Shown piece by piece: positions 11,631 to 51,088 of a DNA stretch of 64,000 nucleotides. The DNA is taken from NCBI GenBank assembly GCA_951799445.1, contig OX637295.1:496001-560000 (forward strand). Direction: 5' to 3'. How positions within the stretch are numbered: position 1 is the first letter of the stretch; each line of letters begins with the position of its first letter. The stretch is from Pseudisothecium myosuroides. Its lineage: Eukaryota > Streptophyta > Bryopsida > Hypnales > Lembophyllaceae. The notes under the pieces were generated by a model. The model made no database searches. It was not told where the DNA came from and worked only from the letters and a program-made list of their open reading frames with translations. The translations under genes were made by a program, and so were the position numbers.

Positions 11631-11649
11631 ATTTCATGCTACAAGAAAA

Positions 11650-15910: not shown

Positions 15911-15938
15911 AATTATGCCATATTTAACTACTTCTGGA
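15911..15938 (+). repeat. Left terminal inverted repeat of the 20.9 kb element
   Basis: 28 bp, exact complement of 36,826-36,853. Its inner half enters a hairpin: TACTTCTGGACT (15,929-15,940), a 6-base loop TTCAAT, then AGTCCAGAAGTA. Confidence 0.9.
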
Positions 15939-15984
15939 CTTTCAATAGTCCAGAAGTAAAGAAGCGGTGAAATCCCCTGATGTT

Positions 15985-17355
15985 TTTCTATGGATCTGGA
16001 GATCTCCTGAAATAGGAACGCTTTGCATGCATCCAATTCAGCACCCACAAGTATGTCGGGGAGTGCTTCATGTGCTTGGAAATGAAAGAAATTGTGTAGT
16101 TGTAACATAGCGGATCCGTGGTAGAGTTCACATGATTGTATTGGGAGATCTGTGGACCGGGTTTCCGTAGTTTAGGCATCCAATTTACAGCACAACTGAA
16201 GTCTCAGAACCTATCGAGAGATCCCCCGATGACCACCACTTGTTGCAAACATGGCTCCCATCCCATATTAATCCCTCAGTGAGCGCCGATCTTCACATAA
16301 TTCTATCGGGAGATCCCCTGACGGGGGTGTAGAATATGAGTCGGCTTCACTGACAATCTTGGTGTCGAAGTGGGGTACAATTTGATTCCTGTGCTAAAGT
16401 GCAAGTGATATCCGAGTTCATCAAGAATGATTCACAATAAGGCACGAGGGGGGCGATTCTTTCAAAGATATATGGTATCCCGAGAGTTCAAAGGAAGTAC
16501 ACACAAGTGGATTTGAAATTCAAACATCAGTTGACAATTACCAAATGAGCAATTGCTCTTGGGAATAAGGAGTCCGGTTCTAGGATTCACCGGGAGATCC
16601 CCCGACGGACTGCTAACATAGTGGAGCTAAGGTAGTCAGGATATGACGAAGTGACAAGGGCATATCACAGTAACTTACTCACAGTGACATTTGAAGAACT
16701 GTAGACCACTGAGTCACAGGTGCTCAGACGTTCAACATACATCTGAAGATGAATAACGGCTAAGTAAACATAATATTCCATCCGAAATAATGATAGTAGT
16801 TTCAGTTTGTGTAAAGAACATCAAGGTTCTTTCACTGCAAAAAATAGATTCGTACTTGGTTGAATGTCCGCTATATAATTGTGAAGATGCAAAACCTAGA
16901 AGACTAGAATTCCAACAGTGTAACTGTGAGAGAAAAGAAATGCATTATTCAGACTCATTTGAGTGTATGTGTGACCTGAGCAATGTATTCTGTTTCGGAC
17001 ACAAACATAAACCACTTCCATTTCAAGAGACGAGAGGAAGAAAGACATCCCGCGCTTCTGCTATCAAGTCATTGCCCCCGTGCCGCACGCAAAGAATAGA
17101 AATCATAAACATATTAATATATTCATACAGATTTATTTTACATATACAAGTCACAAAAAGCAGCTCTGAAAAACTAATCGAAGAACAGTCATACTGACTC
17201 AACGGACTGTACTTCAAAACCCCCACTTGCGGCTGCGCTACTGGATGTAGAATGCGTCGTGCGATATCACGATGGCAGTCGTGCCCCGCAGAATGCATCG
17301 TGACATCTCACGATTGCCGCGACGACCGACACAGTGCGTCGGGAGTTCCCACGAT
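15985..17355. repeat. Left subterminal palindrome cluster
   Basis: Imperfect 18-bp palindromes centred on GATC or GATATC-like cores: about 15,993 (TCTGGAGATCTCCTGA), 16,213-16,230 (ATCGAGAGATCCCCCGAT), 16,305-16,322, 16,590-16,607, 17,255-17,272, 17,297-17,314 and 17,336-17,353. They are more diverged than the internal copies. I see no supported gene in 15,940-17,380; an open frame on + at 16,790-17,197 has no family features. Confidence 0.8.
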
Positions 17356-17385
17356 GGCAGTAGCGACCCCGGACTAGGCACTCAA

Positions 17386-20300
17386 TCATGGGTCCACCAC
17401 GTTTGCCGGATTCAAATTCACTAAGGCACCCTCCCTACTCTTCTGAGGAATCGTCCGTGATTTTTGATCCACTCTCCTGGACCAATTCGCATACACTGCA
17501 GCACCCGCGTCCACCCAGGTGGGGGGACTCTTTTCAACGACCCATTTACCGTACCAGCAATTCCGATAAATCAATTCCAGACTCGTTTCGGAGTTATCGG
17601 GTCGCCAGTACTGAAGCAAGAACTTCCCGTTATTCACATCTCCTTCCAATCTGCATACAGTAGACAATGCTCTTCCCTGCCAAACAGCACATGATTCTGG
17701 GACTTCCGGTCTGACAAGTACCCAACAGCCTAGTCGTATGTCTAGCTATGGATTAAAGCTTTCCCTTGGCGCTTCATTTGCAGGGCCGCAGTAAGGCTCC
17801 GGCTCTTCTTCTTCCTCCGGAATCACGTCCATGGGATTCACCGTCGATCCTGGGTGAGGGACTCCATTACGCGCCACCCTCCAATCGTGTTGTGGCCAGA
17901 AGCCTTCCACCAACTCCGGAGGACACTCGGATAATGGTTCCTTCAGCTCATCGAGAACACACTTCCAGTAATCCACGTATGGACCGAACGCAGTTGCAAA
18001 TCCCTCGCATCTAGAAATACCGTTTTGCCAGTACTGAATGTATTTCTCGAGTCCTACCAGCATGAAACCCTTGTTCAAGGTAGCTTTCCGCGCCGCTTCC
18101 CTTGCCTTCTCTTGATTTCCATGCGGTATCGGAACCTCGCTGCTGCACATGGGCTTAAACGGAACAGGTTTTGGACAGTCGTGAGGGAGCATGGGCCGAC
18201 CATTGCTGTCTGTCTTCCAAATGCGTTCAGAAGGTTTCTTCGACAGCAACCAGTTCGAATCAACTGCTGACCTTTTGAAGTTCATGACGGGGACCCCATC
18301 AGTGTCCACGTAGAACTTGAACAGGTGCATCTCCCCCAATCCAATTAATTTTTCCCCGCGATCGCATTGGTAACCCTCCACGAACGACTTGAAATCCCCC
18401 ACCTCTTGTATGAACTCCGGCATAAATGACAGTTCTTGGGACTGCATGAAGGCTTTCATGAGGTCAGCGACGACAAAAGTGTTCTTGGTCTTCAGGGCCT
18501 TGGAAAGGTGGCTAAAATATGCATCGATGTCCTCGTGAGTGTGTCCGACTAGTAGAAACCCAACCTGAATTTCCTTGAAGACACCTCGTGCAGTGAGCAA
18601 GGATAAGAACGCCATCAAATATTTGTTCTTGTTATCCTTGGCAGAGTTGTCAAGCTGAAGATATAAATTTTCAGGAAGAAGGGTACTTCCGACCCGAGCT
18701 CCAGGTTCGGTGAGGGTTAGGCTGTCCATACATCTAGACTTTCCTCTAAGCAGTGCCTCGAACAATGAGTTAGCCGGCGGATATGGAAAGAGGTCGCCTG
18801 CCTCTCGAATAGGTGGACCCTCCAGCCGGCGCAACAACCTCGCCAAAGACGAAATGGTGAAGTTGGAGTCCGCCGGCCAGCAAGATGGAGCATAATGGGC
18901 GTAAGCATCGTCACCATGGCCATGAGCTACCATTCCAGTAACGCTCATCGGAAGCTGCCCCAAACCGGCCGTGGCCTTCGTTGTCACCCGGAGTCTGGGT
19001 AAAGCCGTCTTGGATGTATCCATCTTGTCGTGAATTATACATAAAATTCTTCGAGGATCTCGTTTGGATTCCTCACGCCAAGACGCATACAAACGACGGC
19101 AAGAAGCTTGGTGATTCAGATGATGAGTCCGCTGCTTCACGAACTCCACGTACTCGGGGCTTCCTTTCGGAGACTTCAGAATAAACTGCTGTAGGTCGTC
19201 GCACGTAGTACATTTTGCAAACGAACTTCCGACAGGCTTAATGGAGACGTTGTTGAAGTGCTCCCGCTTGAGTCTACTAATAGTCAACTGGCTCACGGGC
19301 GGCAGACCGTAGTCGGCATTCAACTGCACATCCAGAATTGGTACGCTTAAGCATCGGTACGAGCGAAGGGGAAGGAATGCAAATGACAAGCAATGCACCA
19401 GAACAGTGATCGTGATATCTCACGATCATTGATCTCGTCGGGAGATCTCACGATCAATAAAGCAGTGACAGGAGATAAGGGGCACTACCTCGTTGGCGTC
19501 TGCTCGGACTCGTTTCCAATTTCTTCCGGGAAGAAGGAATTTTAGAGTGTCCGTTTGCCCGTTCCCGATGCCGCGCATTTGGTGGGGCATTTGATCAGCA
19601 TTCTCGTCAATAATGGCTTTCATAGTCCCAGCGACCTGAACAGTCCGAGCCCGCGGGCGCTTAACCCCTGTGTTTCCGTGCGTCCCTGATACGACGCCGT
19701 CGTTGTACATCTCGATGTAACTGTGGTAAGTGGACTTCGGGATGCCGTGAATTATGTGCCACGCCTTGCCACAAACATCAACTCCCTCTAGTGTGACGTA
19801 TTTCCGCTTCCGCTCCCCGTACCTTTCGTGTAGTTGTCCTCCCACTCCAATCCCATATTCACGGCGCTCGTCAAACGACTTCAAGTAGTACTTCTGCCTT
19901 ACTAACAGCGTGAACTCCTGGTTATAATGCTGACAACACAGACGTCTGCAGCACTTCTCCGAGCTGACTTTTCGAATCTCCTCGTCTGCCATTTTGCGGG
20001 AGTACTGCGATTCCTTCAATTCCAGATTGGGTTTGCGAACTATAAACCGGTATGGTGCTTTCATTCTACCTCCGAGGTAAGCGAGAGGGTCGTCCATATC
20101 GGGAATGGCGGCAAAATGATCCACTGTCTCCTTCAACGAACGACCGTTGGGAAACCAGCACTCCGAAATTGGCCACCTGTCGTGAGACATTATGGCTTCG
20201 GTGTCACCCACAAAAACATCGAGGACTGTCACACCTATGAAACCTTCACTAAGTGTCTCCTCTTGGAAATGATCCTCCGGACTCCAACAAATGATACGAC

Positions 20301-20769
20301 CCAAGGAAACGAGGAGTCCGTCGGCGTCCTTCCGATGCACATCAAGTCCAAACCAGGCTCCTTGACGAATATACGGACATGGATCCATCGGGGGATCCCC
20401 CGACGCTCTAACAACGTCGGCGGCTCTCCACAACACTACATTCTCTTGAACATCCTCTAATGTGTTCATACCCCTCTGACAAGGAAAGCATTTCAAATCC
20501 TGGAATTTTAATTTGACAGAATGAGGTCGCACCAAAATATAAATCCAAGGCTCAACAGGTATGGGCACACCCAGCCACTGGCCCTGGGGACGAACCTCTT
20601 TAACGATTCCTGATCCAACTTCACCAAATCCAGGCACAAACAGCTTAACCCAATCACCATTCACAAACGCTTCACATCCACCGGTGGAATCCTGTGATTC
20701 ACCCTCTACCTGCGTTTCGTCCACATACAGAACTATCGCGTCAGCAGCAGACTCACAGAATGAATCCAT
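17386..20769 (-). CDS. DUF7869-like protein, candidate transposase of the 20.9 kb element
   Basis: Read on the complement: exon 1 20,769-19,489 (427 codons), a 165-bp GT-AG intron, and exon 2 from 19,323 in the same phase. Exon 1 has a Cys cluster CCRRLCC and a VCGKAWHIIHGIPKSTY segment, both typical of the N-terminal half of DUF7869 proteins. Exon 2 has CTTCDD, then three acidic stations that could form an RNase-H-like centre: IIHDKMDTSK (about residues 524-532), LQLDNSAKDNKNKY (649-662) and VGHTHEDIDAYFS (686-698). DUF7869 is a known family of unassigned function common in invertebrates, algae and mosses; a DDE-type transposase role is inference. A TAG at 17,746-17,748 ends the frame after 525 exon-2 codons, yet the same frame continues for 120 more codons with protein-like sequence (GCWVLVRPE, LLQYWRPDNS), so I extend the gene to 17,386. 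Either a 96-bp intron (17,841-17,746) removes the stop or this copy is mutated. Confidence 0.75.
19324..19488 (-). other. Intron of the DUF7869-like gene carrying two palindromes
   Basis: Donor GAG/GTAGTG and acceptor GTGCAG/TTG keep the frame (ANE to LNADYG). The 165 bp hold two adjacent palindromes, ATCGTGATATCTCACGAT and TCGTCGGGAGATCTCACGAT, at about 19,408-19,457. The minus-strand frame is closed across the intron. Confidence 0.75.
20387..20404 (-). repeat. Palindrome inside the DUF7869-like coding exon
   Basis: ATCGGGGGATCCCCCGAC on + lies within exon 1 and is read in frame as part of ASGDPPMDP. It keeps the exon-type form with five consecutive G instead of GTGGG. Confidence 0.85.
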
Positions 20770-20929
20770 TGTCAGAGTGAGCTCTATCGAATCCCGTGGA
20801 CGAGATTAAAACGATCCGTAAAACCTGTACATCATACATTCAAGGAGTTAGGCATGTCTACAGAAGAGCGCTGCATTCATGGCATTGTAACCTCACGACA
20901 TGAAGGACAAAAGCATCAACGTCTGTACA

Positions 20930-21610
20930 GTCGTGGGAACTCACGATCACACGGCAACGCAACATGAACAAGTGAATCTAGTTACTGTCAACAAGAAGTT
21001 CGAAAGCCCAGACGCGATAGTGCGATCTCAAGAAGGCCGTCCCAGAACCACTGGGAAGAAGCCAAGGCATCCAGGAAAACATCGCAGAAGTTTAGAAGAC
21101 ATTAACCAAAGAACGTTCAGTATATCGTGGGATCCCACGACACTCTTGGCGCTTAATCACTTAAACCAGAGATCGCGGTATTCCAAGATCCTCCTAAGGG
21201 ATCACATAGACCGCTACAGAAATACAAATGAAGTAGTGGGTGAAACTGAATCACTCTGATGAGTCCCCGACATATTATCAATCAATCGTGGGATCCCACG
21301 AGTTCGGTATCCTGTAAATTCCGGAAGAGTGTTTGTGAACCCCCCCGAGTAGGAGAACTTGGTGCCAACCGAAAATGTGATCGTGAGATCCCACGATGCT
21401 TATACAAGATCGAAGAGGAGTATGACGGTCATCGATAAGTAAGGCACCTAGACGTACACTAGGAAGGCCACAGCCAAGGTTCAATCGATCGTGGGATCCC
21501 ACGATGAAATGATAGAACATCCCTCGACTACCAGACTGCGATATCTCTATACTCGAAGACTGAGAGGTCTCGCCCACACTCAATAAGCGGAGATCGTGGG
21601 ATCCCACGAT
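20930..21610. repeat. Palindrome cluster upstream of the DUF7869-like gene
   Basis: Six copies: 20,930-20,947, 21,123-21,140, 21,284-21,301, 21,380-21,397, 21,488-21,505 and 21,593-21,610. The last two are the perfect 18-mer ATCGTGGGATCCCACGAT. Spacing is about 95-190 bp. Open frames that run through this stretch in both directions (repeating SWDPT or VGSHD) are by-products of the palindromes. Confidence 0.9.
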
Positions 21611-22194
21611 GCTTACGTATGTTGGATATATACATGTATTCTACTATCGTAGACCGACGTATTTACCGAAGATCGTGAAATTAGGTTTCCTGTCACTGGT
21701 TTCATGACATTCGACACTCTATAACTATTCTCAGTTACTGTACAAAAATTCTCTACTTTTAAAGTGGATTTTGTTGTAATTCAGACTCCTGAACCTCCAT
21801 GGGTACAATAAGAAACGTTCTTAGAAGTAGTTGAATTTGATGGCTGGGTTTTCCTCATGTAAGTCCGCCTAATTCCTAACGCAACCTAATTTCAGTACTT
21901 TGTGAAGACGTTCTGACCGGTTGTCATCCACGTACAAGGTTCTCATATCAACTTGCCCTCAGGGCAGTGCCGTCCCGCGATTCAAAAGGAACCTTGATGT
22001 CACCACAGCATGGTGATCCCTTAAGCACGTGAGTTTTTCGCAAAATGAGACCAATGTGCGAAGAAAATTATCGCAGACTCCGTTTCACTTTCAATCTACG
22101 ACATCCTCAGTTTGTGACAGAGTGCAGTGGCGTCAATTCGACTACAAAATCCTCAACATTCGGAATCGCATAACACTTGCAAGGGATGCATTCT

Positions 22195-22400
22195 TACCTT
22201 GCAGCAACTGGCTCGGTCAGAACTTCGTGCGCCTCCACGCCCACTCTGTCGCCAACGCCGGCAGACACCCACTCGCCACTCCGCAGCCTGCTCCACTTGT
22301 TCACGTGTGCAATCGAAAAGAGCAAGCTCCAGGTTCTTTTCGGGTTATGAACCAGGTGGCTGGTTGGAATTCTTCAGCTCTGAATTCCCGCCGCGAATTT
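22195..22400 (-). pseudogene. Possible coding exon of unknown gene
   Basis: On the complement the frame reads NPKRTWSLLFSIAHVNKW followed by a GEWVSAGVGDRVGVEAHEVL segment and then meets a good donor (CAAG/GTAAGA) at about 22,196. The surrounding GC content is raised. I could not splice it in phase to the DUF7869-like exon at 20,769, so it may be an upstream exon joined through one I missed, or a remnant. No domain recognised. Confidence 0.35.
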
Positions 22401-22924
22401 TGAAATCACCAAGCGATCCTTGATTTCGAATGTTGGATGCGTTCTTGAATGCCGTGCCACAATCAACAACGGCTGGGGGGTACGTGCGGTCCTTCACTTC
22501 GGAAGTTGATTGCATTCTCGAATTCTGCGCATCTCCGACTACAAGGAGGGAGGGCGTGGGGCTCTTGACTTTCTGACTGGAACTTTGCAAATCCAGGCTT
22601 CACTGAAATTCCGATTCTTCACTGACATTTTGAAATTCGCCGCATTCAAGGATGGTATCGTTGCACCGTTTTCTAGGAGTCAATGATGCTTTGACCAAAG
22701 CGGATCAAACTCTGAAGACTTTCACTTCACAGAATGTCACACGCTTCCCCGATCAATACTCGGAATTCTTCCCCTACACGACCTGATTATACGTATCCTA
22801 CAGAAACGAACTGTACCAAATCTCGTGAACCCAAAAGCTTGAGCACCTGAAACATGTGGAACACCTCACTTACAAAAAGAATCAACAAAAATTTTGAACT
22901 CTTGAATGTTCATATTTGTTATTT

Positions 22925-23175
22925 TCTATTCCAATGAATGCAATCTTTGGGTCTAGGGTCCACAGTCATAGGGTCTACAGTCCACGGTCATAGGGTTTAG
23001 GGTACATGTTGTAGTGTAGTGTTCACAGTTTCAAGGTCATGGTTCTTCGTTTCAGGGTTTAGGGTTTCAGGGTTTAATAGGGTTTAGGGTATACAGTGGC
23101 AGCGCTTTACATTAACGTTTTCAGGGTCTACAGTTCATGGTTTACGGCTTTTAGGGTTTAGGGTATTATGAAAAA
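22925..23175 (+). repeat. Degenerate telomere-like TTTAGGG tract
   Basis: GGGTTTAGGGT and variants (TAGGGTCTACAG, TTTCAGGGTTTAGGG) recur through about 250 bp. TTTAGGG is the plant telomere unit, but the copies here are irregular and mixed with CACAGT/GGTCAT words. Confidence 0.65.
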
Positions 23176-23426
23176 TGAAAATGACGCTGATTATTTGTTT
23201 CCAATTTTTTCCTCAATTAAGTTTACGTCATCTCAGACTGGGAACATATAAACTTAAAATTCAATCTAACTCAATATTGCTAATTAAAAATGTCAGTTAA
23301 CAGATTGATTTCATATATAATTCTTGTTATGTAGTACAACATCCTATGGTTTAATATGGGACTTTACGGATTAAACAATGATTGACACAATTTTTATTTC
23401 ATCTACGAATTTTTAAATAAAGCACC

Positions 23427-23579
23427 AGGGGCTTTTTTGCGTTTCCCTCTTTCATTTTTTCCTGCGTAAACGGCAATCCATGACTTCTCCTTGTGTCACA
23501 ATCCGTTGACACAATAAAAAGTCATAAGATTGTTGTTTACATAGGGGAAAGTAAGAGAGGGAAACGCAAAAAAGCCCCT
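23427..23579. mobile_element. 153-bp MITE-like element
   Basis: A perfect 24-bp inverted repeat, AGGGGCTTTTTTGCGTTTCC plus CTCT at 23,427-23,450, is matched by its complement at 23,556-23,579. The interior is non-coding. No clear target duplication is visible, so the superfamily is open. Confidence 0.75.
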
Positions 23580-23879
23580 TGTGAAGGACTTTGGATGTGC
23601 AATCATGATGGAACAAAGAACAAACTGAACCATTTATTTATTTTGTATTTTAAATCTCAGTCTGAATGATTTAATGAGTTAAATGCTTTCAAATTTGTTA
23701 ATGCACTTTGACGGGTGATGAATGCTTAAACCTGGAATCATGTCATTCATGAGAATATTGTAGGTCATGCAGTCTTCATCTGGATTTTTGAAATGATCGA
23801 ACGTGGTATACATCTACATCATTATTTGACAATGATGTACGTAATACTGTTATTTGTTATTGTTATTTGAACAATCTCC

Positions 23880-24860
23880 ACCGATGTGAAACAAAAAATC
23901 GGGAATGAAATGCGTGATGGCTTGAAACGGCTTAAATAATATTTAAAAAGTCATGAAATTTCATACATGCATGCATAAAATTTGATTTAGAAAAATGTAA
24001 TTGCTCCAACCTTAAATTCCACCACTATTTTCTAGTCTTGTCCGTTGAAAAATTCTAATTCACATGAAAATAAAAAAATTGGGAATGAAACGGGCCCTAC
24101 CATTGAACTATGGCTTCATTTTAAAAATGTCATGGAATTTCACACGTGCATGCATAAAATTCTACTGTGGAAGTTGGAATTGCTCTCAGGATTTAGATTC
24201 CACCACTATATTCACTTCTTGCCCATTGCAAAATTCTAATTCACGTGAAGAAAAAAAAATTGGGAATGAAACAGTCAGGCCCTGCCATGGAATGGCTTCA
24301 TTTTAAAAACGTCATGGATGGTTCATACATGCATGCATAAAATTCTATTGTGGAAGTTGGAATTGCTCTTATGATTTAGATTCCACCACTATAATTATTC
24401 ACTTCTTGCCCATTGCAAAATTCTAATTCACGTGAAGTAAAAAAAATTGGGAATGAAACGGGCCCTGCCATGGAATGGCTTCATTTTAAAAATGTCATGG
24501 ATGGTTCATACATGCATGCATAAAATTCTATCGTGGAAGTTGGAATTGCTCTCAGGATTTAGATTCTACCACTATTTTTACTTCTTGCCCGTTGAAAAAT
24601 CCATCTTAACGTGAATTAAAAAAAATGGGGAATAAAAATATTGGGCCCTGCCATGAAATGGCTTCATTTTAAAAATGTCATGGATGGTTCATACATGCAT
24701 GCATAAAATTCTATCGTGGAAGTTGGAATTCCTCTTAGGATTTAGATTCCACCACTATAATTATTCACTTCTTGCCCATTGCAAAATTCTAATTCACGTG
24801 AAGTAAAAAAAATTGGGAATGAAACGGGCCCTGCCATGGAATGGTTTCGTTTTAAAAATG
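23880..24860 (+). repeat. Satellite-like tandem array, unit about 180-188 bp
   Basis: Words GGGAATGAAACGGGCCCTGC, ATGGCTTCATTTTAAAAA, CATGCATGCATAAAATTCTA and TTAGATTCCACCACTAT recur in the same order with starts near 23,902, 24,081, 24,262, 24,450, 24,629 and 24,815. Later copies are closely similar; the first is diverged. It occupies the non-coding centre of the 20.9 kb element. Confidence 0.88.
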
Positions 24861-24888
24861 TCTGGCAATTTCATGCATAAGACAGTGC

Positions 24889-26060
24889 ATGTCGATATGG
24901 AAAAAAAGGTACAAGTTCAAAATACTCCGCTCATGAAGTGAAGAGGCATGAGCGGGAGAAGTCCATGCTACGTTTTTCCGAACTTACCACGTAACCTAAA
25001 AAGGTCCTCCTTCGCCTGCGGTTCATTCAAAGAACTCTCATTCCATAAATCATACATAAAACAGTACATGTCGATATCAAAAAAAGAATGTATAAGTTCT
25101 TAATCTTCCGCTCATGAAGTCATGAGCAAAAAAAGTCCATGGTACGTTTTCCAAAATTGCGATACATATTACATGTCGATTTAAAAACAAAAAATTGAAG
25201 TTGTAACTTAATATTAGTTTTTTTTTCATAAATTGAAGATCATTTCTGAACGTCCTTTGTTTGACATTTTTTTTTAATTTCCATTTTTTGCAAGTAATTC
25301 CAAGATCATGGGCGGCTGGGCTTGGTCATGTACTTTGGAGAACTGTCTCCAGATATGCTCCAAAACACAAGTAAATTAAATAGATTAACACCTAGTATGC
25401 CCCTAAAATCGCGGGCAATCACGCTCTTGTCCACATCTATTCAATGATCATTGCAAGACAATTAATATAGAAGACAATAAGATAATTTAGGTATTATTTC
25501 TTCATTACACATTTGCCAATCATGTTGATTGTATACATGAAAATGATTGCCTAGGAGATGAATGAGAAAGAATTATATAGGATAATCATCAACAATGTTC
25601 CCTGTACTTATGTATTCGTTACAGTCATTTCTATTTAATTAAATAATTTGGACTAATCATTTTCTAGAAAAATGACACAAGTGCAAATTAGAAATCAAAG
25701 TTCATTATGTTAAAGGCATATTTAGCGGCTTGTAAAAAAATAATAATCATCGAAACCAAAGGTTAAACCTAGAAATCAATGTAGCAATCTATGAAATTAA
25801 ACCGCTCATGATTCGTAACTAATGTTTGCATGGGCAGAGTATTTAAAATAGTAAAACTACATTTTTTTTTGTTAAAATTAACTTGTACAACATCATGCAT
25901 GATTTATGGAATGAAGGGTCTTTGAACCGCAAGACCGAGGGTTTTTTTTTAGGTTACGTGGTAAGTTTGGGAAAACGTAGCATGGATTTTTTCCGCTCAT
26001 GACTCTTCACTTCATGAGCGGAGTATTTACAACTTGTACATTTTTTTTCCATACCGACAT
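24889..26060. repeat. Fold-back structure with arms of about 165 bp
   Basis: 24,889-25,056 is matched in inverted orientation by about 25,895-26,060; shared words include CTCCGCTCATGAAGTGAAGAG, CATGCTACGTTTT and TTACCACGTAACCTAAAAA (read on +, left arm). A partial second copy of the left arm lies at 25,064-25,165. The AT-rich interior has no gene. It could be a fold-back transposon or an inverted duplication. Confidence 0.75.
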
Positions 26061-26340
26061 TTAAAATAGTATAACTAGGTTGCCTTATTTCAACAAAGTT
26101 ACTTTACAAGCCATCAAAGTAAATAAACGTTTCTACAATTATTTTTATTTGTAGACATGGAGTTTCGAGAGTTCCAATAGCAACAATACTTAAATAACAA
26201 ATAGTGCATTCTTATAGAGAAACAAAAAAAATGTATGTGGTAATTATCGAATGTCACGAAATTAGTGAGGTGCAAGTGTGCGACCTAATTTCAGCATTTT
26301 GTGTAATGAGTGATTATTTAGCTTAAGACTTCTAGTCAAG

Positions 26341-26373
26341 CCCTCCTCATGATGTCAGTAATCATGAGGAGGG
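26341..26373. repeat. Hairpin just upstream of the large rightward gene
   Basis: CCCTCCTCATGA at 26,341-26,352 and TCATGAGGAGGG at 26,362-26,373 form a perfect 12-bp stem with a 9-base loop. It lies at the edge where GC content rises toward the first exon and could be a promoter element or a leftover footprint. Confidence 0.6.
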
Positions 26374-27921
26374 TGGGCAGTCATGGCCTCCGCCGTCTTG
26401 CACCTGACAGCGCCACGTCAGCATTTCCCCCCGACGGTTTCCTCTCCTCCTGGTTTCCTTTCCTCCTCACGATGTCTGCTTGCTGTGTTTTTCTCCCGAC
26501 GTCGTGTGCTTCTCCGTTCTCCGTTTTGCTCAGTTGTGCGCTTCTCCGCTTTCCTTGTGCGTTCATTCTCAGTTGCTGCAGTTCGTGAGTTTGGGTCAGT
26601 GTCTGAAGGTTTGCATTTCGAGTGAGTTTGGTTGTTTGGAGGTTCTCTGCTTGGTTCAATATTTGTGCGCGGAGCTGAGTGCGTTGGGGGACATCGAAGG
26701 AGCGTGTTCAAATTTCGCTGGCGGAGTCTGTGTGGAGCTGCGCGGAGAACGACACTGCTATCTCGTGGTGGAGTGTGCGGAGCATTTCCTGGCGGAGGCG
26801 GTGTGCAAGCTTCCGAATCTAGTGCGCGAGAAGGACAGGGTATTGGATTTCACTCGGCTCATCCAACAGGTTAGTTTGTCGTAGTCAAGCCTCCAAAGCA
26901 GCATTTTGATTTTGTAGTTCTGACTCCATCTGTGAGGTTGATTTACTTTTTTGTTGTGGATTTCTGATTGCATAGAGCTGCGCGTTTGCTCTGGATTTCA
27001 GCTTCTAGGCTTGGAAAGAATTGATGATCCCATTCAAGCTTGTAGATTGCATCATTCTAGTACATGGATACAATGAATGTTTAGCACTCGCCTTCCTTGC
27101 AGTTGTAGGCTCTCCTCACGCATCGTAGTTCTCGGTTCATATGAACTGTAGACCCTAAAATGCTAAGTAACCTTGATGTAGTTCACAAACTAGAGTTCAA
27201 TGTGTATGGACTGCTGTGAGTGTTTGAATTGAAGCAAAGTGAAGTAAGGAATGGGAATGTTGCTCCCAAAGAGGAATGGAGCGAAGAGTTCATTGTATAT
27301 TATTTAGTTAGATAGTACTCGTTTGTGAATGATATTAGGAACATGGTTTGTGCAGGGATTTTATGACTATGATTAGACACGCTTGTTTTCTGTGCGATAG
27401 GCTACTTAGTCCGCCACTTTAGATTTAAGTTTACCTTCTCTTCAATTAAATTCACTTGGCTAGTCATGAAGAAACAAGTTAGGAGTTTGTGATTCTCAGT
27501 GAATGATTGAAGCTACAATTTCTTCTGCATTTGAATTTCATGCAACAGTCTTTCGAAGAGCGAAAGGGCATTTTTGTAGTAGCTGAAAACAAGGCCGGAC
27601 CCGTGCAAGCGGAAGCTACGATGGCAGCAGCTCCATCCCAGCGTACAGCAGACCTCCCAGTTTGGAAGGACCCGTAAGTTACTTTGAACTATATTCTCAT
27701 TACTTTCCGTTTCTTGCTTGCAATGTCTAGGTTATAAACAATAATTAGGGTATGGCTGTTTGCAATTGCATTGGTACGCACTTTGCTGAAAACGAGGGTA
27801 GTAGAGCCTCTGTCATAGTTGCTGTTATAAACATGGCCGAGAAATACGGTAGTACATATGCCGAGAAGAACACACGGTAATGAGTACGTGACTCTGTTAC
27901 GGCGGATAGTGACCCTAAAAC

Positions 27922-28600
27922 CGTGCATCGTGGGATCCCATGATAGGGCAGTCCCTGTGTAGATTCGAGCATTGTAGGATCCCTGACTTGAAACCCTAGC
28001 TGCCCACCACTGTGCGGCCACACGAGTTTTAGGGTTTGTGGCCCATCATGGGATCCCCCGATGATAAGATGTGAAGACGCAATCTAAACCCAGACCACAT
28101 ATTAGGCACAGACCAGGCAGCGGATTAGTAACCCATCGTGGGATCCCCCAATGGAGGATAGTAAAGACCGCGCCTGACCCAGACTTAACAATTAGAAGGC
28201 CACCTACATAGAGCATTCAAGTACTAAATCGTCGTGGGAAATCACGACGAGAAAGTCTAGCGTGGGTAGAGAAATTGAGATGCAGGCAGGTTAATAAGTA
28301 GCGATGATTATGTGAACAATCAATCGTGGGATCCCACGACAGACAGTAGTTTCACAGATCATCACCGATCACCTTCTAAGATATTCCAATATCCATTCTA
28401 TATTATTTGGTGCCGTTGTCATATTCCGGGACGCCTTCAGTTAGTGAGTTGAGATGCAGTAACCTCCTGCCCGCTACTGTCCGTGAATGTAACTGATCGT
28501 GATATCCCATGACAACGGTAATTTGTGAAACCAGGTCATCAAAATGATCACGAAACCATTCCTTCTCTTTCATAACATCCGTCGTGGGATCCCACGACTA
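27922..28600. repeat. Palindrome cluster in intron 2 of the large rightward gene
   Basis: Seven copies between exons 27,673 and 28,697: 27,927-27,944, 28,045-28,062, 28,135-28,152, 28,230-28,248, 28,323-28,340, 28,496-28,513 and 28,580-28,598. Spacing is about 85-175 bp, similar to the cluster at 20.9-21.6 kb. Confidence 0.9.
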
Positions 28601-30084
28601 AGGATAAAAATTAAAGTTAGAACGGGAATAATATCGCACCACCATCTGCTCTATCGGACAATGTGGAAACTAACATCTCTTTCTACCATGCTGCAGTGAA
28701 ATGCAAGTCGTTGAAGGTCCTGAAGAACTGACACCCAGGAAGCTTGGTACCTTCATCAACTGCTACATTACGTCTTTGGAGTACACAGGTCCACATCCAC
28801 CACAAGCCTTTTTCCGATGCGACGAGCAGATTACGCATTAGGGAATCGCCTGGAAAGCAGAGAGTGACAGCTCCGCCACTATTCTTCCCACGCTGGTGAA
28901 TGGGACAATGGGGCACCCAACTGCCGGACTGAAGGTACTAGAAATGAAGGGGCTTGATGACGACACAGCGCTCCTAGTTGTAGAGGAGAAGGTTCCCCTT
29001 TCCGGGGAGATCATAACGTTTGGGCTGATACTTGACTATGCGAAGTTCAGCCTCACTCTTTGCGAGTCTGTGACTGCAAGGTCACATCTGATGTGCAAAG
29101 ACACGTCTAAGCCTCGGTGGAAGCCTAAGGAGCTGAAGAACCAGTGGGACATAATCCTGGAAGACTTACGAGATACGAACGCTCCCCCCCAAGCCGTGAC
29201 AGCGGTTGCTCCCACGCCGTCCCCCCAAAAGAAGACCAGGAAGAGGAAGTCTGCAGTTGGTGCTCCCGGGGACGAAGTTGAAGCCGCAGCTGGGACATCC
29301 GGAAAGAAGAAAAAACCGGATACCCCGCTTCCGCTTCACAGGGCTGTGGCTCTAGGGGAGGCAGACGTGAAGAAGATGACACCGGAAGAGATGAATAAGA
29401 TGAGGACCCTGTACGAGAACTCTTTCGGTGGCCTGTACAATTGGGGCAGGAAACCAGTCTGTGACAGCAAAGGAGAGCTCATCCGCGTGCACTACGACTA
29501 TCTGCACCAGGCACCTGTAGCACTGCTCGTGTACAGGGGAATTCAGGCAGAGTGGCTTGATTCGCTGACGAGGAAGGCACAAATCACACCTGATTATGAC
29601 TCGGAGAACAGAGTCATAACAGTGCTTCCCCTTAAAGCGGGACCCTACGGCCCGGCGAAGGTAGTGTCGCACTATGAGAAGCAAGCGCCGAAGAAGGAGA
29701 TCTTTGAAAACCCCAAGACGCACTACTACATTATAGGGGGCCAACACACTGTCCAGGCATTCAAGGACCTGATTAGGCTTGGTGTGATTCCCGAGAAGGA
29801 CAAGAAGCTCGCCTCCACCTTCAATATTTTACCTGTGTGGACGGACAAAGATCACCACGGAGACCTAGTGCACTTCTCGCGGGCGCTGAACCAAGATGTC
29901 GTTGGCGAACAGAAGGAGCAGAACTTCACGAAGCAGCTGTTGAACGCAAGAATCAAGTGGCGGAGTATGGGAAGTCCACAGCCAGCAATATTGGGCAGAT
30001 CACACTCAATAGGGTACAATGTAAGAATGCTGCTGGAGTTGACATATTTTTTTTTGGGGGTCATCAGAGTGCGCTCTACCTAAC

Positions 30085-30405
30085 CATCGTGGGATCTCCC
30101 GATGGTCCTGCACTACATCTCAGACCTTCATTACGTTAGAACCTCGTCATCGTGGGATCCCACGACTAAGTCCTAAATTTGCGATACGGGGTAGTTCTAC
30201 GTTAGAGTGCGGCAATCGTGATATCCCACAACTTTAACATATGAAATACCAGATAGCGCTAGTTTAGTTTTTTGTGCTCGCGGTTCAGTGCGTGGTGTTT
30301 TCAAATTGTGCATGTAGAAGATAGTGGCTCATCGTGATATCTCACGACTGCCTGTTGCCTAAACGACTTCCTTGTGGTAACTGACTGATCGTGGGATCGC
30401 ACGAC
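30085..30405. repeat. Palindrome cluster in intron 3
   Basis: Five copies within the 459-bp intron: 30,085-30,102, 30,149-30,166, 30,214-30,231, 30,331-30,348 and 30,388-30,405. One further copy, 32,197-32,214, lies in the short intron 5. Confidence 0.9.
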
Positions 30406-32900
30406 TGTTTATTGGACTTCTTGTGTTCACGTGGTCTGTCTACGGATCGTGTACTGACTGTTACTCCTTTGTTGGGCAGGCGTTTCAACCGTCGGTGGCA
30501 TCAATATTTGCGGGAGCAAAGGCGAAAGACATCGCCGAACTGAGAATCCCTCTACTCTTCCTGGAGAACGACGCTGATGTTCAGAGATGGATCAAGATAG
30601 AGGAGAGATTCATGGCAGGTCTCCTTCCCGACGCGGCGGGGCTGGTCGATGTATCGGGGAGTATGGATCGCAAACCGTTGGCGGCAAACGACTTCAAGGC
30701 CCTTTACGGACTTAGACCGGAGGATATCAATTTCCTTGCGGATAAAGTTGAAGCTCAAGTTATTAGCATGAAGACCTCCGTCGCAAAGTCGAAATCACAG
30801 AGAGGTGGAAAACGCATTATCTCTCTTGCAGACGCCGGCGCCAAAATTCGGTTGGTCAGGGCGATGAAGAACGAACTCTTGTCACACTACAAGGGTCATC
30901 TGCTGCCGGCGAGGAGGGTGGAGTACGAGCCTTACCCGGACTCTTTGTGGGTCGAGTTTGCGACGGAAAGGAACATTGAGCACGAGGATGTGGAGATGTG
31001 GGTGAACAAGGCAATGGAAACCCCTGCTGGAAAGAAGTGGTTGCAGGATCGGACAAAAAATCTCAACAGGACGTTCGACCCAGCTGACCTTCCGCAGTCG
31101 GTGATCCAAATGTGGGAGTCGTATTTCAAGCTGACGGCGGAGGAGGAATCTGTGCAGGCAAATGCACGTGGTTTTTCAGAGCACTATCTCTGTAAAACCA
31201 TGGACGAAAGCAGCTGGGACATCAGCGCCACCTTGGCGGCAGGGGACGTCATAGCATAGAGGGGAAAGAAGAAGCAGCACCTGTACATCTGGTTCATGTT
31301 CGAGTCAACGTCCTGCGGGTGTCGCGCCAAAATTCTTGAAGAGCGGAAGTTGAAGAGACTCTTTGACGCTCTGGAGTACTATGATCCGCAGGACCAGACA
31401 ATCGTAGCCCGCTCTGCCGCCGTTCTCCTCACAGATGCCGAAGGGTTCCACATGATTGTGGCTCACATAGAGAAATGAAGGATGGAAGTCAAAGCTAGGT
31501 TGTGGGACTGGCACGTTGTGAACTACATGGCAGGGCCCGAAGACTTCTTCCCTCAAGCTCCGGCCGGAGACGGGTACAATGTCTTTGTTGTCTTCATTTT
31601 TGGGCACAGCGAAGAGCACGACCGGCGGACTTGCTTCAAAAGCTTCTTCCCGGGATTGGACCGCCTGACTCAGGTGTATAAGGCGGAAGATATGCCGGAC
31701 GACTACCCTTACTGGCGTCGGCAGCAGATGCCGTATTTGAAGATCAGCAGTGCGTTGATTCTATTCGAAGGACTAGCTTGCAGCGACTATGTCTTTGTGA
31801 ATGTCAACGGGGGTCCGGAGTTCACATATCTGGGCTTGGTATGCACTACAACGATTGTCTTTTCTTTTGTTCTTCTGATAATCTCCTTTCGATTTCGGGA
31901 ATTTGAATGTCACTAATTTCTGGTTGTTGTATTTCAGTATTCGGAAGGTAATAAAGTGCTGGAAGTTGTCGATTCAGCGGAAGCGAAGACGTTAAGTGAG
32001 GTCTTCGCCAAGCAGATTTGGGACGACAAACATGCGCAGGCGGCACCCCTTCCTCTTCCGGAGGCCGAACACGAGGACGAGGAAGTTGAGAGTGATGATG
32101 AAGATGCTGTACTCGAAGACATCACCCTACACAGACCGGGTTTAGGAACAAGGTCGGTTGAGCACCCTAAGGTTAGTGTGCATTATTTGCTGAACCATCG
32201 TGATATCTCCGGACGTTGGGTAGCGTATATCTCTCGCATGCTAATCTGGGAGGGCAAACTGAGCTCAATTGTGGTGGGATATTGCCTTTCTCGCAGGCGA
32301 AATCTCCGACTCCCTCCCCCCGGCGAGAGCAGCTGATTGATCCGCCAAGTGCAGCAGAGGATGCAGACGAAGTTCCCGAAGTTCATTCGGCGCAGGCGGA
32401 GCTGGCAGATCTGACAGAGGAGCATGAGAGTAGTCCAGAGCCGTTACCAGCCGAAGAAATTGTAATTCCAATATCGAGCGGGTCGTCAAGCGAAGTGAAT
32501 TCAGGGATCCAATTAACGGACCCAAGGATATCCAAGAGGAAGCCGCTAAGACGCCAATCAAGGAACCCGACACCGCAAAGGATACTGGGAGCACAAAGGC
32601 GGCCAAGCGAGCGCGGAAGACAGCAGGCGAGAATCGGAAGGGGGGGACCTCCAAGTGGACTCCAAGTAAGTCGTTGGTGCAGCGCAAACAGTCGCCAGCG
32701 AAGCCGACTGGGAGTCCCAATCCCGAAGCATCAGTCGCGGCAGAAGCGCTTCTGACTTGTGCCTTGGGACCGTTACCATCGAGGCCTGACAAGTCGACTC
32801 AGCCGCAACAGGAGGATGCGCAGGCATCTCGTGCTTCAAGAGCTGACAGACAGCTTCCAGACCTCGACTTATTAACCCTGGAAGACATTCACCGACCAGC

Positions 32901-33242
32901 ATCGGGGGATCCCACGATGACGAACGAGTCACTGGTCAAGAGCGGGGAGGATGCTGCCGACCTCAACGAGGGGAGGAAAGAGTTGAAGGGGGATGATGAC
33001 CACCTCGGATCGGGGGATCCCACGACGATCCATGCATTACCTGTCGAGACTGAGTTAGCTGTCTCTCGACGTGGTGCAGGGAAGGATGACCAAGGCCGGA
33101 CACCGGGACCTGAAGGATCGGGGGATCCCACGATCGTTGAAAAGTGAGTGGTCTCAATTCATCATGGAGATCCGGCAGAGAGCGAGGGGGGTGAACACCA
33201 GGAAGGAGTGGTTGCATTGACTTCGTCGGGGGATCCCACGAT
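32901..33242 (+). repeat. Four in-frame palindromes inside exon 6
   Basis: 32,901-32,918, 33,009-33,026, 33,117-33,134 and 33,225-33,242, all of the form TCGGGGGATCCCACGA and all read in the same frame as SGDPT followed by Met, Thr or Ile. Successive copies are 108 bp apart (36 codons). A fifth, degraded copy near 33,160-33,177 reads HHGDPAE. Confidence 0.92.
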
Positions 33243-34064
33243 TGTGCCAGAGCGATTGCTCCCGCCAATGGGCATCACAGTTGCTGTACTGAACGACACC
33301 CTTGTTGACTTGGTCCCCCTGAGTCCCAAACCTGTTCCTGGAAGGAAGAGTAAACCTGTCATAGGGCGGGCGAGGATTGTCGACATTGCTTCATTGGCCT
33401 CCAGTGTTCCACTGGAGGTTGCAGGAGAGGTGGTTCCTGATGACAGTGAGTGCAATTCTGACGAAGTGCTAGAGGCCATACCTTACGAGGCCGAAGAAAT
33501 AATGAAGTTTTGTCTTGTCGATCGTATGAGAGCATTTGGTCATTTACCGAGTCTAAACCACTATGGGAAGAAGCGTCTCGATACCAACAAGGAAATTCAT
33601 TTGGAATCCGTAAGGCGAGCGAACCGTTTCCTTTACAAGCCCGTCTTTAAATGGATATTTCAGGATGGTCCGCGTGCAGTGTATGATGGAGGGGATCCAC
33701 CTGATGCAGACGAAGAGTGGGAGGCAGTGGAAGGCGGCGTTAGAGGGAGGAGGGTGGTGCCTTCGAGCGACGACGAGCTTGAGCCGGGATCTTTGAGTGG
33801 TGACCAGGGGGAAAGAGGACCAGTGAGCGCCGACGAGAGAGGAAAGGGGCAAATGCTTGTCGAGAGGAGGGGGGAAGGATCAGTGAGTGGCGGCGAGAGG
33901 GAAAGAGGACGATTGGGCGACGAAAGGAGGGCAGAAGGGTCGCCAGCTTGTAGCGTCCGAGCTCCCGCAGGTAACATGCCTACATTATTGTCAATGTACA
34001 TACGAGATAACGAATCTTGAATTGGCCGGTCACTGACTCTGTGCTTCTCTTGTATTCTGCAGTT

Positions 34065-34715
34065 TTTCGAGTGCCTGCTGAACCGGTGGCGAAGTCGTCG
34101 AATCAGGTAGAAAGGCGGCGGTATTATGTGGTCTTTGACCTTAATGGAGTTCTTGTTCACAGGTCATTCAATGAATTGAACAAACGCATCGTAACACTTC
34201 GACCGAATGTTGGTCAGTTACTTGACTTTGTGCACAGACATGCAAACATTGCATTCTGGAGCAGTATGACACCGGCAAATGTGACGAAGATATTGAATCA
34301 AATGCTGCCAGGGACGTCTGTTAAGGCAAAGGACGTGCCTGTTCTCACGCAGGAAGACTGCACAAAGTCGTCCTACAGAGACCCCAAACACCCGAACAGG
34401 CCCTACTTCCTCAAGGATCTAAATCATTTCGCCACTTAGCTGGGTTTGAGGTCAACCGAGAATGTTCTCCTCGTTGATGACGATCCACTTAAGAACCTCC
34501 TGAACGATTGTCATAGCGCCATTTTCCCCCGCAAATTTGAAGGGGACTGGAAGGACCAGTACCTTGTGGGGGTGCTCAGTCCTTGGCTCGGAGGTCTGTT
34601 TAAGTCACAGGAAGCTGTGCCTGCGTATGTCAAGAAGCATCCGCTCCACAATGGTCTGCCACCGGCGGTCCCGTTGACCAGACCGGGGTCTGACATTTTG
34701 AGGGCAGTAGTTTAG
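34065..34715 (+). pseudogene. FCP1/NIF-like HAD phosphatase domain exon
   Basis: This last exon of the large gene holds a complete SCP/FCP1-type fold by motif order: FDLNGVLV (nucleophile loop), FWSSMT, a basic insert, then VDDDPLKN (motif with Asp pair). Family members dephosphorylate RNA polymerase II C-terminal domain or other phosphoproteins in the nucleus; many plant DLNG versions may be inactive because the acid/base Asp is Asn. A TAG at 34,437-34,439 cuts the domain between HFAT and LGLRSTENVLLVDDD. Reading resumes in the same frame to TAG at 34,713. Confidence 0.8.
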
Positions 34716-34740
34716 TTTTGGTTTCTCTTCCTCGACGAAC

Positions 34741-36790
34741 TTCATCATGATATCTCACGATCTCCTTTTGGCGTGCATATTATTGCTTGTAGCTTAAAAC
34801 TCTTGAACATACTGTAAATATTGTAAATGCATTTTCGAAATACTGGACATTCTTTGTTTGTAGGAGGCATTGATTCTGCCTCGGTAGTAAATGTGAAAAT
34901 AAATTTTTTTCCTAAATGCCTTTGATTAAGATAATTATGAGTTCGAAGGGATCACCTCGACCTTGACTATTAATCCGCGTGCATGCACATCTAGAGATCT
35001 AATGGTATACCGTGGAAGTAGATTCTATCGGTAGATCGGACTGTTCTGGGCATTTATCCTTGTCTTTTAAATCTAATGTGAATGCATTTCCGGTGCATGA
35101 TCCTCACTTAGAATTGTTTTCTTACTCTTCGTTCGCAGCTTTAATCTAAATTTGGTTCTAAAATTGTTTATCATATTACTCGAAAGAGTGGAATTTTTTG
35201 AACACCTCATTAGATTTTAACACTGGGCGTCATCATCTTGCGCGGCAAGCTTCATCAGGAGATCGCACGATACGACGTGACGTGTGAACATTGAAATGTC
35301 GTTTCCGTCCTTGTATTGTCTCGTGATATTGTTTTTGTACTTGTGGATGACAGTGAAGTTGTAGTTGTGCTTCTACTGTTTGTTTGGGAGTTCTCCTGCA
35401 GTTCCGGTTTGCTGAAGTACGGATTTGAAATTGATAATTTTGTTCTGTGTCTTCGGCTTGATCGGAAGATCTCACAATCATTTTCCCTTGCATGGAATTA
35501 TTAGTCTTAGGCGGATTATGTAATGTCCATTTTTGTTGCTTCAATCGAATGCAATTGAATTTCTGCTGCGTAACTTCCTTTGCTCGAGTATTTTCGGTCT
35601 TCTAGTATGTCACCCTAAACCTTTTTTTGTATTTGACGCGAATTCTAAATCTGCATCCCTTGTTAGTGCTGTATTCTAGGCTGCAGTGACACCGTAGATG
35701 TATTGCTAATTTCCTTGCACTATGCAGCAAATAAGACATTCAGTCGCTGTTCTTCAAATAACTACCCATGCGTATTTTCAATTAGCGGTTCTGTTGTATT
35801 GCATATTGGTCGGGGGATCTCACAATCAATTGACGTCGTTTCTGTATGTACATGTCTGCGTACTGAGGCTTACTTGGTCTTTGCAGAAGGCGATGCTCTT
35901 AGTACTAACAGGAGATCTCTGCGTGAAGGGCGGTGTGGCGGATCTCCCACAGAATATCGAAATTCGGCCCGGCTTCCGTGGTCTTCTCCGACATTTCGTT
36001 CAAGAAACTCACTGTGGTTTGTGGTCCGCAATGCAACCTTCAACACTGGCCGCTCTTCTTTGACGTATTCTACCGCCGGAAATTCTGTCAAGGTTTCTAT
36101 TTTTTGCCGGGTCTGACAATCCACGAAAGAACCAGGTGTATCCCCATCGTCATGCAATACTGAAGACTGTCTTGAACATTCCTCGGACGCGCAGGGTACT
36201 CTTGAATAACAGTGTTGTAATGCTTGTCCTAGATCCTCTTGATTGGGAACGTCCGCACTTGCTTCGACCGGCGTTGCATGTGAGGGATGATGTAGATCCT
36301 GTAGAGTTAGATCGTCCGCACATTATAGCATCGCCTTTTGATTGGTCTTGGGCCCCAAAAAACATGTAGTTGGAAGTGGACTAGCTGGGTTATATATCAC
36401 CTGTTTGTTGCATCCAAATGATTTTATAAGTGGCGAATCCACCTTTTCTATCTGACTGTGATTACACCTTACCAAATGTCTGTAATTGCATTATGTTGCT
36501 TCATCCATTCTTTTGTGTTATGTGATACTTTGGGAAGTATCTTCTGAGCTCTCCCAATCTGTGATGTCGCATATTAATGCAACCCCAGATACAAATGTAC
36601 CGCTTACAGCAAATGTCGGAGTTGACATCATCTCAAATTCATTGATTTGTTCGAACACTCTATCCCGAAGGAGTATATTTCCTTGCATCGGGAAATCTCC
36701 AGACCACTTAGCATCCCAAAGCGATTTAAATCTCCTTTGAACGGCATTACGGACTCATTGTACATACCATCGGGAAGATCTCCCGATGGA
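34741..36790. repeat. Right subterminal palindrome cluster
   Basis: Six spaced copies: 34,745-34,762, 35,254-35,271, 35,461-35,478, 35,810-35,827, 36,687-36,704 and 36,769-36,787. They are less perfect than the internal ones and favour the AGATCT core, as in the left subterminal cluster. Confidence 0.8.
35870..36757 (-). pseudogene. Third element gene, remnant near the right end
   Basis: Two protein-like blocks on the complement. Block 1, about 36,757-36,518, reads FKSLWDAKWSGDFPMQGNIL, then FEQINEFEMMSTPTF and VSGVALICDITDWESSED; a GTAAGC donor follows TFA. Block 2, about 36,370-35,870, reads DDLTLQDLHHPSHATPVEA, PNQEDLGQALQHCYSRV and FVDCQTRQKIETLTEFPAVE and ends after AEFRYSVGDPPHRPSRRDL. 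A TAA interrupts block 2 near 36,326, and a TGA precedes block 1 near 36,748; both could come from CAA and CGA by C-to-T change. A palindrome copy lies in block 1 (SGDFPMQ). No family recognised. Gene limits are uncertain. Confidence 0.5.
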
Positions 36791-36825
36791 CAGGACCTTC
36801 ACAAAGTCCAGAATTCCCCGTAAAT

Positions 36826-36853
36826 TCCAGAAGTAGTTAAATATGGCATAATT
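36826..36853 (-). repeat. Right terminal inverted repeat of the 20.9 kb element
   Basis: 28 bp matching the left end without mismatch. Just inside, a second TCCAGAA at 36,807-36,813 makes a direct repeat rather than the hairpin seen on the left. Confidence 0.9.
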
Positions 36854-40380: not shown

Positions 40381-40398
40381 CGTTTTCTTGTAGTGTCA

Positions 40399-45208: not shown

Positions 45209-45218
45209 CGCAAAAATC

Positions 45219-51063: not shown

Positions 51064-51088
51064 TAGTGTTCGCGAGGACGCTCACAGA

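What the first reader, a model, noticed from the sequence alone, without database searches (positions are those of the whole stretch)
15911..36853. A 20.9 kb TIR element with three genes, inserted in a CACTA-like transposon
A perfect 28-bp inverted repeat bounds an interval whose GC content, gene content and palindromes differ from both flanks. Few plant DNA transposons are this large, and I do not know a named family combining a DUF7869-like protein, a ParB-like/FCP1-like giant protein and a third unknown gene. The nesting in a CACTA-like element gives two independent sets of borders that agree with each other.
Basis: partly seen in the sequence, partly recalled or inferred. Interest (0 to 1): 0.92.

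Follow-up and report, generated by a model that had tools for sequence, protein, structure and literature searches.

The report
Giant moss transposon with ParB-like protein
A plant genome, probably of a moss, carries many copies of a 21-kilobase jumping gene that encodes its own likely transposase plus a large protein with a fold known from bacterial DNA-partition proteins, and is studded with about forty copies of one short palindrome that look like docking sites.

Summary
Bases 15,915-36,849 are one transposon: 24-bp perfect terminal inverted repeats, AATT duplication, inserted in a CACTA-like element with its own TCA duplication. In the same 388-Mb genome the repeat occurs 1,157 times (up to 3 mismatches; control 0). 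Twelve further copies read in full have the same borders; 22 of 23 copies checked have equal 4-bp duplications. Eight relatives of the CACTA flank, read from 40 found, show the empty site.

Two genes show coding signal. Gene 1 is a DUF7869 protein, modelled as a DDD transposase. Gene 2, on the other strand, has a ParB-like domain and a NIF/FCP1-like last exon. Of five segments tested, the ParB-like exon is most constrained.

New: 40 palindromic 18-bp sites (ATCGTGRGATCYCACGAT) inside, none in the flanks, retained in other copies and changing less than nearby DNA. I infer a ParB/parS-like cis system; binding is untested. Closest precedent: 21.5-kb Sola1-1_Ec32 of Ectocarpus. The window copy is broken in both genes.

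The parts
11634..11636 (.). TSD (TCA) of the outer CACTA-like element, left
   Evidence: matches 40396-40398
11637..11671 (+). left TIR of the outer CACTA-like element (TGCTACAAGAAAA...)
   Evidence: inverted match of 11639-11671 with 40361-40393, 28 of 33 bases; AGTCATATTT-type repeats near both ends
40361..40395 (-). right TIR of the outer CACTA-like element (CACTACAAGAAAA... on the minus strand)
40396..40398 (.). TSD (TCA) of the outer element, right
15911..15914 (.). 4-bp TSD (AATT) of the inner element, left
   Evidence: a single AATT (3) or AGTT (5) in the 8 empty CACTA relatives read
15915..15938 (+). left TIR, 24 bp perfect; second TTCTGGA motif at 15949-15955 (minus)
36826..36849 (-). 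right TIR, 24 bp perfect; second TTCTGGA motif at 36807-36813 (minus)
36850..36853 (.). 4-bp TSD (AATT), right
19481..20769 (-). gene 1 exon A: N-terminal part of the DUF7869 protein (splice ends inferred)
   Evidence: no stop in the majority of 13 copies
17389..19360 (-). gene 1 exon B: DUF7869 / RNase-H-fold core with conserved D, D, D, and a C-terminal small-barrel domain (BAH- or MazF-like)
   Evidence: (PF25273, E 2.5e-44), model, one search matches, acids
17746..17748 (-). in-frame stop (TAG) before the C-terminal domain, seen only in the window copy
   Evidence: no stop at this codon in the 12 other copies
28674..30019 (+). gene 2 exon 1, ParB-like (true start not determined); in-frame stop at 28839-28841 in this copy only
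   Evidence: pN/pS 0.10 for shared variants
29448..29903 (+). ParB-like fold (residues 203-354 of the ORF, GGQHTV motif)
30481..31837 (+). gene 2 exon 2, 452 codons, conserved in relatives, no Pfam match at E up to 10
31939..32170 (+). gene 2 exon 3 (inferred)
32298..33968 (+). gene 2 exon 4, low-complexity; holds four palindromic sites that read as GDPT in frame; frameshifted in the window copy
34063..34715 (+). gene 2 last exon: NIF/FCP1-like HAD phosphatase-like domain (DLNGVL motif)
   Evidence: PF03031, E 4.2e-9 in the window; E 1.7e-15 in copy L029
15994..16606 (.). palindromic sites near the left end: 15994, 16213, 16305, 16589
17256..17355 (.). palindromic sites 3' of gene 1: 17256, 17297, 17338
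19409..19454 (.). palindromic sites in the inferred intron of gene 1: 19409, 19437
20387..20404 (.). palindromic site in the coding part of gene 1
20930..21610 (.). palindromic site array upstream of gene 1 (8 sites, 48-113 bp apart)
27927..28598 (.). palindromic site array upstream of gene 2 (7 sites, 85-173 bp apart)
   Evidence: all 7 kept in 2 of 3 divergent copies
30086..30405 (.). palindromic site array in the inferred first intron of gene 2 (5 sites)
   Evidence: all 5 kept in 3 of 3 divergent copies
32197..32214 (.). palindromic site (weaker) between inferred exons 3 and 4 of gene 2
32901..33242 (.). four palindromic sites exactly 108 bp apart in coding sequence of gene 2
   Evidence: one copy has an insertion here that carries a further site
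34744..36704 (.). palindromic sites toward the right end: 34744, 35254, 35461, 35809, 36687
21611..27926 (.). site-free middle, GC-poor in part, with 183-bp tandem repeats; present in the 12 other copies, so part of the family

Best explanation
A multicopy 21-kb TIR DNA transposon family with 4-bp TSDs, consistent with a giant Sola-type cut-and-paste element. Gene 1 is most likely its DDD transposase, which should act on the TIR with its paired TTCTGGA motifs. Gene 2 makes a large ParB-like protein, probably with a phosphatase-like C-terminal domain. Shown by computation: borders, copies, TSDs, empty sites, open frames under purifying selection, folds by model, and a conserved array of about 40 palindromes that is specific to the element in this window and in the flanks of 12 copies. 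Inferred: the ParB-like protein, or a protein that works with it, recognises these palindromes on its own element, as bacterial ParB does at parS, upstream of both genes, in introns and near both ends. Most likely use, inferred: it builds a nucleoprotein complex that holds a 21-kb element together so that distant ends can be paired, and regulates both promoters. Transposon family about 0.97; site array functional about 0.85; ParB-like protein is the binder about 0.55; compaction or end-pairing rather than silencing control about 0.3.
Confidence: 0.6

Rival explanations
1. The palindromes are binding sites of the transposase itself (as TnpA sites in En/Spm, recalled), and the ParB-like protein does something else.
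For: Four sites lie within 700 bp of the left end and one within 170 bp of the right end; the gene-1 protein has cysteine-rich stretches that could bind DNA.
Against: Sites spread over upstream regions, introns and coding sequence rather than only the ends. The ends have their own repeated TTCTGGA motif, two per end and only two elsewhere in the element, which is a better candidate transposase site.
Confidence: 0.2
2. Gene 2 is an anti-silencing or chromatin-marking factor: it coats the element through the palindromes and keeps the host from silencing it, as proposed for algal ParB-methyltransferase accessory proteins.
For: PMC12477816 section 5 proposes that such proteins bind and modify their own transposon. 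Copies show many C>T and G>A changes, 2,445 of 5,006 differences from the majority base, which fits methylation after insertion.
Against: No methyltransferase domain found in gene 2 by Pfam at E up to 10 (exons 1, 2, 4 and the last); a phosphatase-like domain is present instead.
Confidence: 0.3
3. The palindromes are sites for a host transcription factor or replication/insulator protein captured by the element.
For: Arrays sit upstream of both genes; 8 of the 50 listed exact palindromes lie away from any listed TIR (my reading).
Against: 42 of the 50 listed places lie in or near this family; a host factor would be expected to have sites at host genes too. The 8 others may be relics; not examined.
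Confidence: 0.12
4. The array acts in RNA as hairpins, or is a passive repeat.
For: Many sites lie in introns or coding sequence.
Against: Sites also lie upstream of both genes and at the ends; flanks unrelated; substitution is reduced.
Confidence: 0.06
5. Not one element: two unrelated TIR arms or an assembly artefact.
For: None found.
Against: 12 full copies with the same structure and equal 4-bp TSDs, and empty sites.
Confidence: 0.01

Closest known systems
Sola1-1_Ec32 of the brown alga Ectocarpus (PMC12477816, section 5 read)
   Same: Giant DNA transposon (21.5 kb against 20.8-22.4 kb in the copies read here), a transposase gene and an opposite-strand gene with a ParB-like domain.
   Different: Its accessory protein is 1,104 aa with a DNA methyltransferase domain; here about 1,750 aa by exon sums, with a NIF/FCP1-like domain and no methyltransferase detected. 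No palindrome array is mentioned in the section read. Sequence relationship of the transposases was not tested.
Sola superfamily of DNA transposons (PMC10741241, passage on Sola read)
   Same: DDD transposase, 4-bp TSD, some over 15 kb, variable TIRs; found in the moss Physcomitrella and said to be uncommon in flowering plants.
   Different: Membership by transposase phylogeny was not tested; no call linked DUF7869 to Sola.
ParB/parS partition systems of bacteria (biology recalled; folds compared)
   Same: ParB-like fold and an array of short palindromes on the DNA that encodes the protein.
   Different: Eukaryotic transposon; no ParA seen in the ORFs scanned; DNA-binding domain, CTP use and binding not shown; sites are dispersed over 21 kb.
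CACTA/EnSpm transposons with subterminal TnpA sites (recalled)
   Same: Repeated short motifs of protein-site type inside a DNA transposon; the element into which this one is inserted is of this type.
   Different: Inner element has 4-bp TSDs, no CACTA termini, a different protein family, and sites across most of the element.
KDZ giant transposons (Ectocarpus, Chlamydomonas; PMC12477816 passages)
   Same: Very large, accessory genes.
   Different: KDZ TSDs are 8 bp (recalled), and Pfam names the protein here DUF7869.

Membership tests
Sola superfamily | 4-bp target-site duplication | tested here: met
   22 of 23 copies (window, 12 full copies, 9 of 10 end pairs)
Sola superfamily | DDD transposase | tested here: met
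Sola superfamily | TIRs of 11 to 1124 bp; most 2-9 kb, some over 15 kb | tested here: met
   24-bp TIR, 20.8-22.4 kb in the copies read; ranges quoted from PMC10741241
Sola superfamily | transposase groups with Sola1, Sola2 or Sola3 in a tree | not testable with these tools
   No Sola reference sequence was on hand; Pfam calls it DUF7869 only
ParB family | ParB N-terminal fold | tested here: met
ParB/parS system | central DNA-binding helix-turn-helix | tested here: inconclusive
   Not covered by the model (exon border); no Pfam match in exons 1, 2 and 4
ParB/parS system | cognate palindromic sites clustered on the encoding DNA | tested here: inconclusive
   40 palindromic sites inside, 0 outside in the window; that they are cognate to the protein is not shown
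ParB/parS system | site-specific binding, CTP switch, partner ParA | not testable with these tools
   needs protein work; no ParA family among the Pfam matches of the ORFs scanned
Algal ParB-methyltransferase accessory proteins | methyltransferase domain in the same protein | tested here: inconclusive
   No Pfam match in exon 2 at E up to 10; a degenerate domain cannot be excluded
CACTA/EnSpm (inner element) | CACTA termini and 3-bp TSD (recalled) | tested here: not met
   Termini ATGCC..., TSD 4 bp
CACTA/EnSpm (outer element) | CACTA termini, 3-bp TSD, subterminal repeats (recalled) | tested here: met
   (left terminus reads TGCTA)
KDZ (Zisupton and relatives) | 8-bp TSD (recalled) | tested here: not met
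   4-bp TSD in 22 of 23

The most novel reading that the evidence does not exclude
A eukaryotic cut-and-paste transposon has built its own ParB/parS-like system: an element-encoded ParB-like protein loads on about 40 palindromes carried by the element, gathers the 21 kb into one nucleoprotein complex, and so makes transposition of a giant element possible and specific to DNA that carries the array. This would also explain why no short copies were seen among the exact-ended pairs that could be viewed.
Probability: 0.3. Interest if true: 0.92.

Novelty: new variant of a known kind. Interest (0 to 1): 0.74.

Why it matters
ParB-like accessory proteins in giant eukaryotic transposons have been noted in algae with the suggestion that they bind their own element (PMC12477816, section 5), but the section read names no binding sites. 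This family offers a candidate for the missing half: a precise, abundant, conserved site, concentrated in the element, in many near-identical copies. It makes the question of what bacterial-type partition folds do in eukaryotic transposons directly testable by gel shift, DAP-seq and deletion of site arrays, and gives a route to how transposons above 20 kb pair their ends. It also suggests a function, transposase, for DUF7869.

Tried and rejected
Third gene: six candidate ORFs, 35873-36322 (-), 16757-17194 (+), 26408-26881 (+), 36064-36366 (+), 22017-22400 (+) and 35236-35601 (-), show pN/pS on shared variants of 0.53-2.27 (on singletons 0.38-0.99), against 0.10-0.48 for the gene segments. Of four checked for frame, three are broken in 6 to 11 of 13 copies; 35873-36322 is open in 12 of 13 and is not excluded.

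Nested insert as the cause of the site-free middle (21.6-27.9 kb): rejected, because the 12 other copies share it. One of the 12 copies (C3_33400096) lacks about 1.5 kb of gene 2 and carries an insertion of about 1.8 kb.

Helical phasing of the sites: none. Viral-contig relatives by protein, TIR and palindrome: none (records of this genome may be left out there). Rfam: nothing at gathering scores. PDB by sequence: nothing for the gene-1 ORF, the ParB-like ORF or the phosphatase-like part. DUF7869 in the paper library: 0 papers. For a ParB-bearing plant transposon or a parS-like array in a eukaryotic transposon I ran; in the rows listed (20 of 33, 10 of 10, 12 of 212, 12 of 50) I saw only PMC12477816 as pertinent, and read none of the others from those lists except PMC10741241 in passages; PMC9033089, which mentions Sola, was not read. 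PMC12730594 was not read (one search failed). A profile scan of bacterial genomes with the ParB alignment could not be run as given and was not repeated. Sola membership by tree could not be tested. A count of gene 1 in the genome was not obtained.

P0032 and P0132 (gene-1 and gene-2 relatives) have the same longest-contig length, 68,570, which suggests linkage in another genome; not verified.
Full report
OBSERVATION. The 28-bp perfect inverted repeat is real: 24 bp of TIR plus a palindromic AATT at each side. The element proper is 15915-36849 (20,935 bp), TSD AATT. The DNA around it is a CACTA-like element, 11637-40395, with TIRs of CACTACAAGAAAA type (left start TGCTA; 28 of 33 bases match), AGTCATATTT-type repeats near both ends and a TCA duplication. 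A 195-base query made of the two flanks with one AATT finds 40 places (all 40 scored of 1,226 candidates) that match over nearly its whole length; 8 of them were read, with AATT in 3 and AGTT in 5 at the junction and a 6-base difference in a nearby short repeat.

FAMILY. The window lies in a 387.9-Mb genome. The 23-mer TIR with up to 3 mismatches occurs 593 times forward and 564 reverse, against 0 in the reversed control. Of 100 listed exact ends (contigs C1 to C6), 39 adjacent +/- pairs can be formed; 28 are 20-24 kb apart, 3 are 24-30 kb, 8 longer, and the shortest is 20,786. Twelve of the 20.8-22.4 kb pairs were read in full: all have both TIRs and equal 4-bp TSDs of varied sequence, and with the window copy they are 94.8-99.2% identical to each other; 11 of 12 cover the whole window element, one lacks about 1.5 kb. 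Of 10 further pairs 9 have equal TSDs, one has AATT/TATT. The ParB-like ORF has at least 101 matches of 88-100% identity (101 of 409 candidates scored).

STATE. The window copy has an in-frame stop before the C-terminal domain of gene 1, and several stops and a frameshift in gene 2; other copies have lesions elsewhere, most of them in one copy only and a few stop positions in two copies. Both exons of gene 1 are open in 2 of 12 other copies, and all six segments of gene 2 that I tested in 1 of 12. Differences from the majority base are mainly C>T and G>A, 2,445 of 5,006. Variants shared by two or more of 13 copies show purifying selection: pN/pS 0.10 (ParB-like exon), 0.19 (exon 2), 0.22 and 0.48 (gene 1 exons B and A), 0.39 (last exon); singletons give 0.40-0.64. 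These counts are small (12 to 22 nonsynonymous shared variants per segment), gene 2 exons 3 and 4 were not tested, and CpG decay can create shared variants.

SITE ARRAY. They lie near both ends, 3' of gene 1, in inferred introns of both genes, upstream of both genes at steps of roughly 100 bp, and in coding sequence, where four sites are exactly 108 bp apart. The 12 copies have 37-41 sites each and none in their 600 bp of flank. The matrix was trained on the window copy, so counts in near-identical copies are not independent; the stronger tests are these. Substitution in sites is lower than outside in each of four context classes (CpG 69 of 2,157 against 1,119 of 24,816; CHG 14 of 490 against 873 of 22,596; CHH 29 of 2,530 against 1,373 of 73,523; A/T 16 of 4,129 against 1,511 of 139,723). 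In two copies that differ by 6.6% and 11.9% in noncoding DNA, all 12 local sites are kept at about half that divergence; a third, damaged copy keeps 9 of 12, with 40 of 216 against 254 of 1,020 differing (3 of 12 wanted copies could be fetched). Flanks of different sites are unrelated. Genome-wide the exact 16-mer occurs at 905 places, control 0, where 0.09 is expected (my arithmetic); of the 50 listed places, 34 fall in five intervals between listed TIR pairs, 8 within 21 kb of a single listed TIR end and 8 elsewhere (my reading).

INTERPRETATION. The ends have their own repeated motif, TTCTGGA, twice per end and twice elsewhere in the element, which suits the transposase. A second, dispersed, palindromic site together with a ParB-like protein under stronger constraint than the transposase suggests a ParB/parS-like partnership. 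The absence of pairs shorter than 20.8 kb among the visible exact ends hints that internal sequence is needed in cis, but only the first 100 ends could be seen. I propose compaction and promoter control; protection from silencing is the main rival. None of this was tested by experiment.

KNOWN. PMC12477816 (section 5 read, other passages seen) describes the closest element, Sola1-1_Ec32. PMC10741241 (passages) gives the Sola features that this family meets. PMC10294476 and PMC4455052 were seen in passages only. Sola membership by sequence is untested.

Noticed in passing
window 43786-58620: A Ty3/gypsy-type element (gag, RT, RNase H, integrase matches in ORFs at 45749-50853) with LTR-like repeats near 43.8-45.2 kb and 51.1-52.9 kb and an inverted copy at 57.5-58.5 kb, perhaps a rearranged or nested retroelement.
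   Followed up: no
window 6256-9687: A PPR-DYW gene in a 1,143-codon open frame, the clearest sign that the host is a land plant.
   Followed up: partly
window 24901-26047: A pair of 102-bp inverted repeats (91%) 943 bp apart inside the element; the 12 other copies show cross-matches of the same kind.
   Followed up: partly
window 23939-24862: 183-bp tandem repeats; the match patterns suggest that their number differs between copies and accounts for part of the length variation.
   Followed up: partly
C1 copy at 43643304 (L015-L017): The most divergent of the 12 full copies has an insertion of about 108 bp in the coding array of gene 2 that carries a further palindromic site.
   Followed up: partly
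P0092, P0094, P0096 (Branchiostoma): DUF7869 together with a Ulp1-type peptidase domain (PF02902) in amphioxus proteins.
   Followed up: no
window 11637-40395: In the 7.8 kb of the outer CACTA-like element no open frame of 150 codons or more was listed, while its flank query gave 1,226 first-look candidates, so it is probably a large non-autonomous family.
   Followed up: partly
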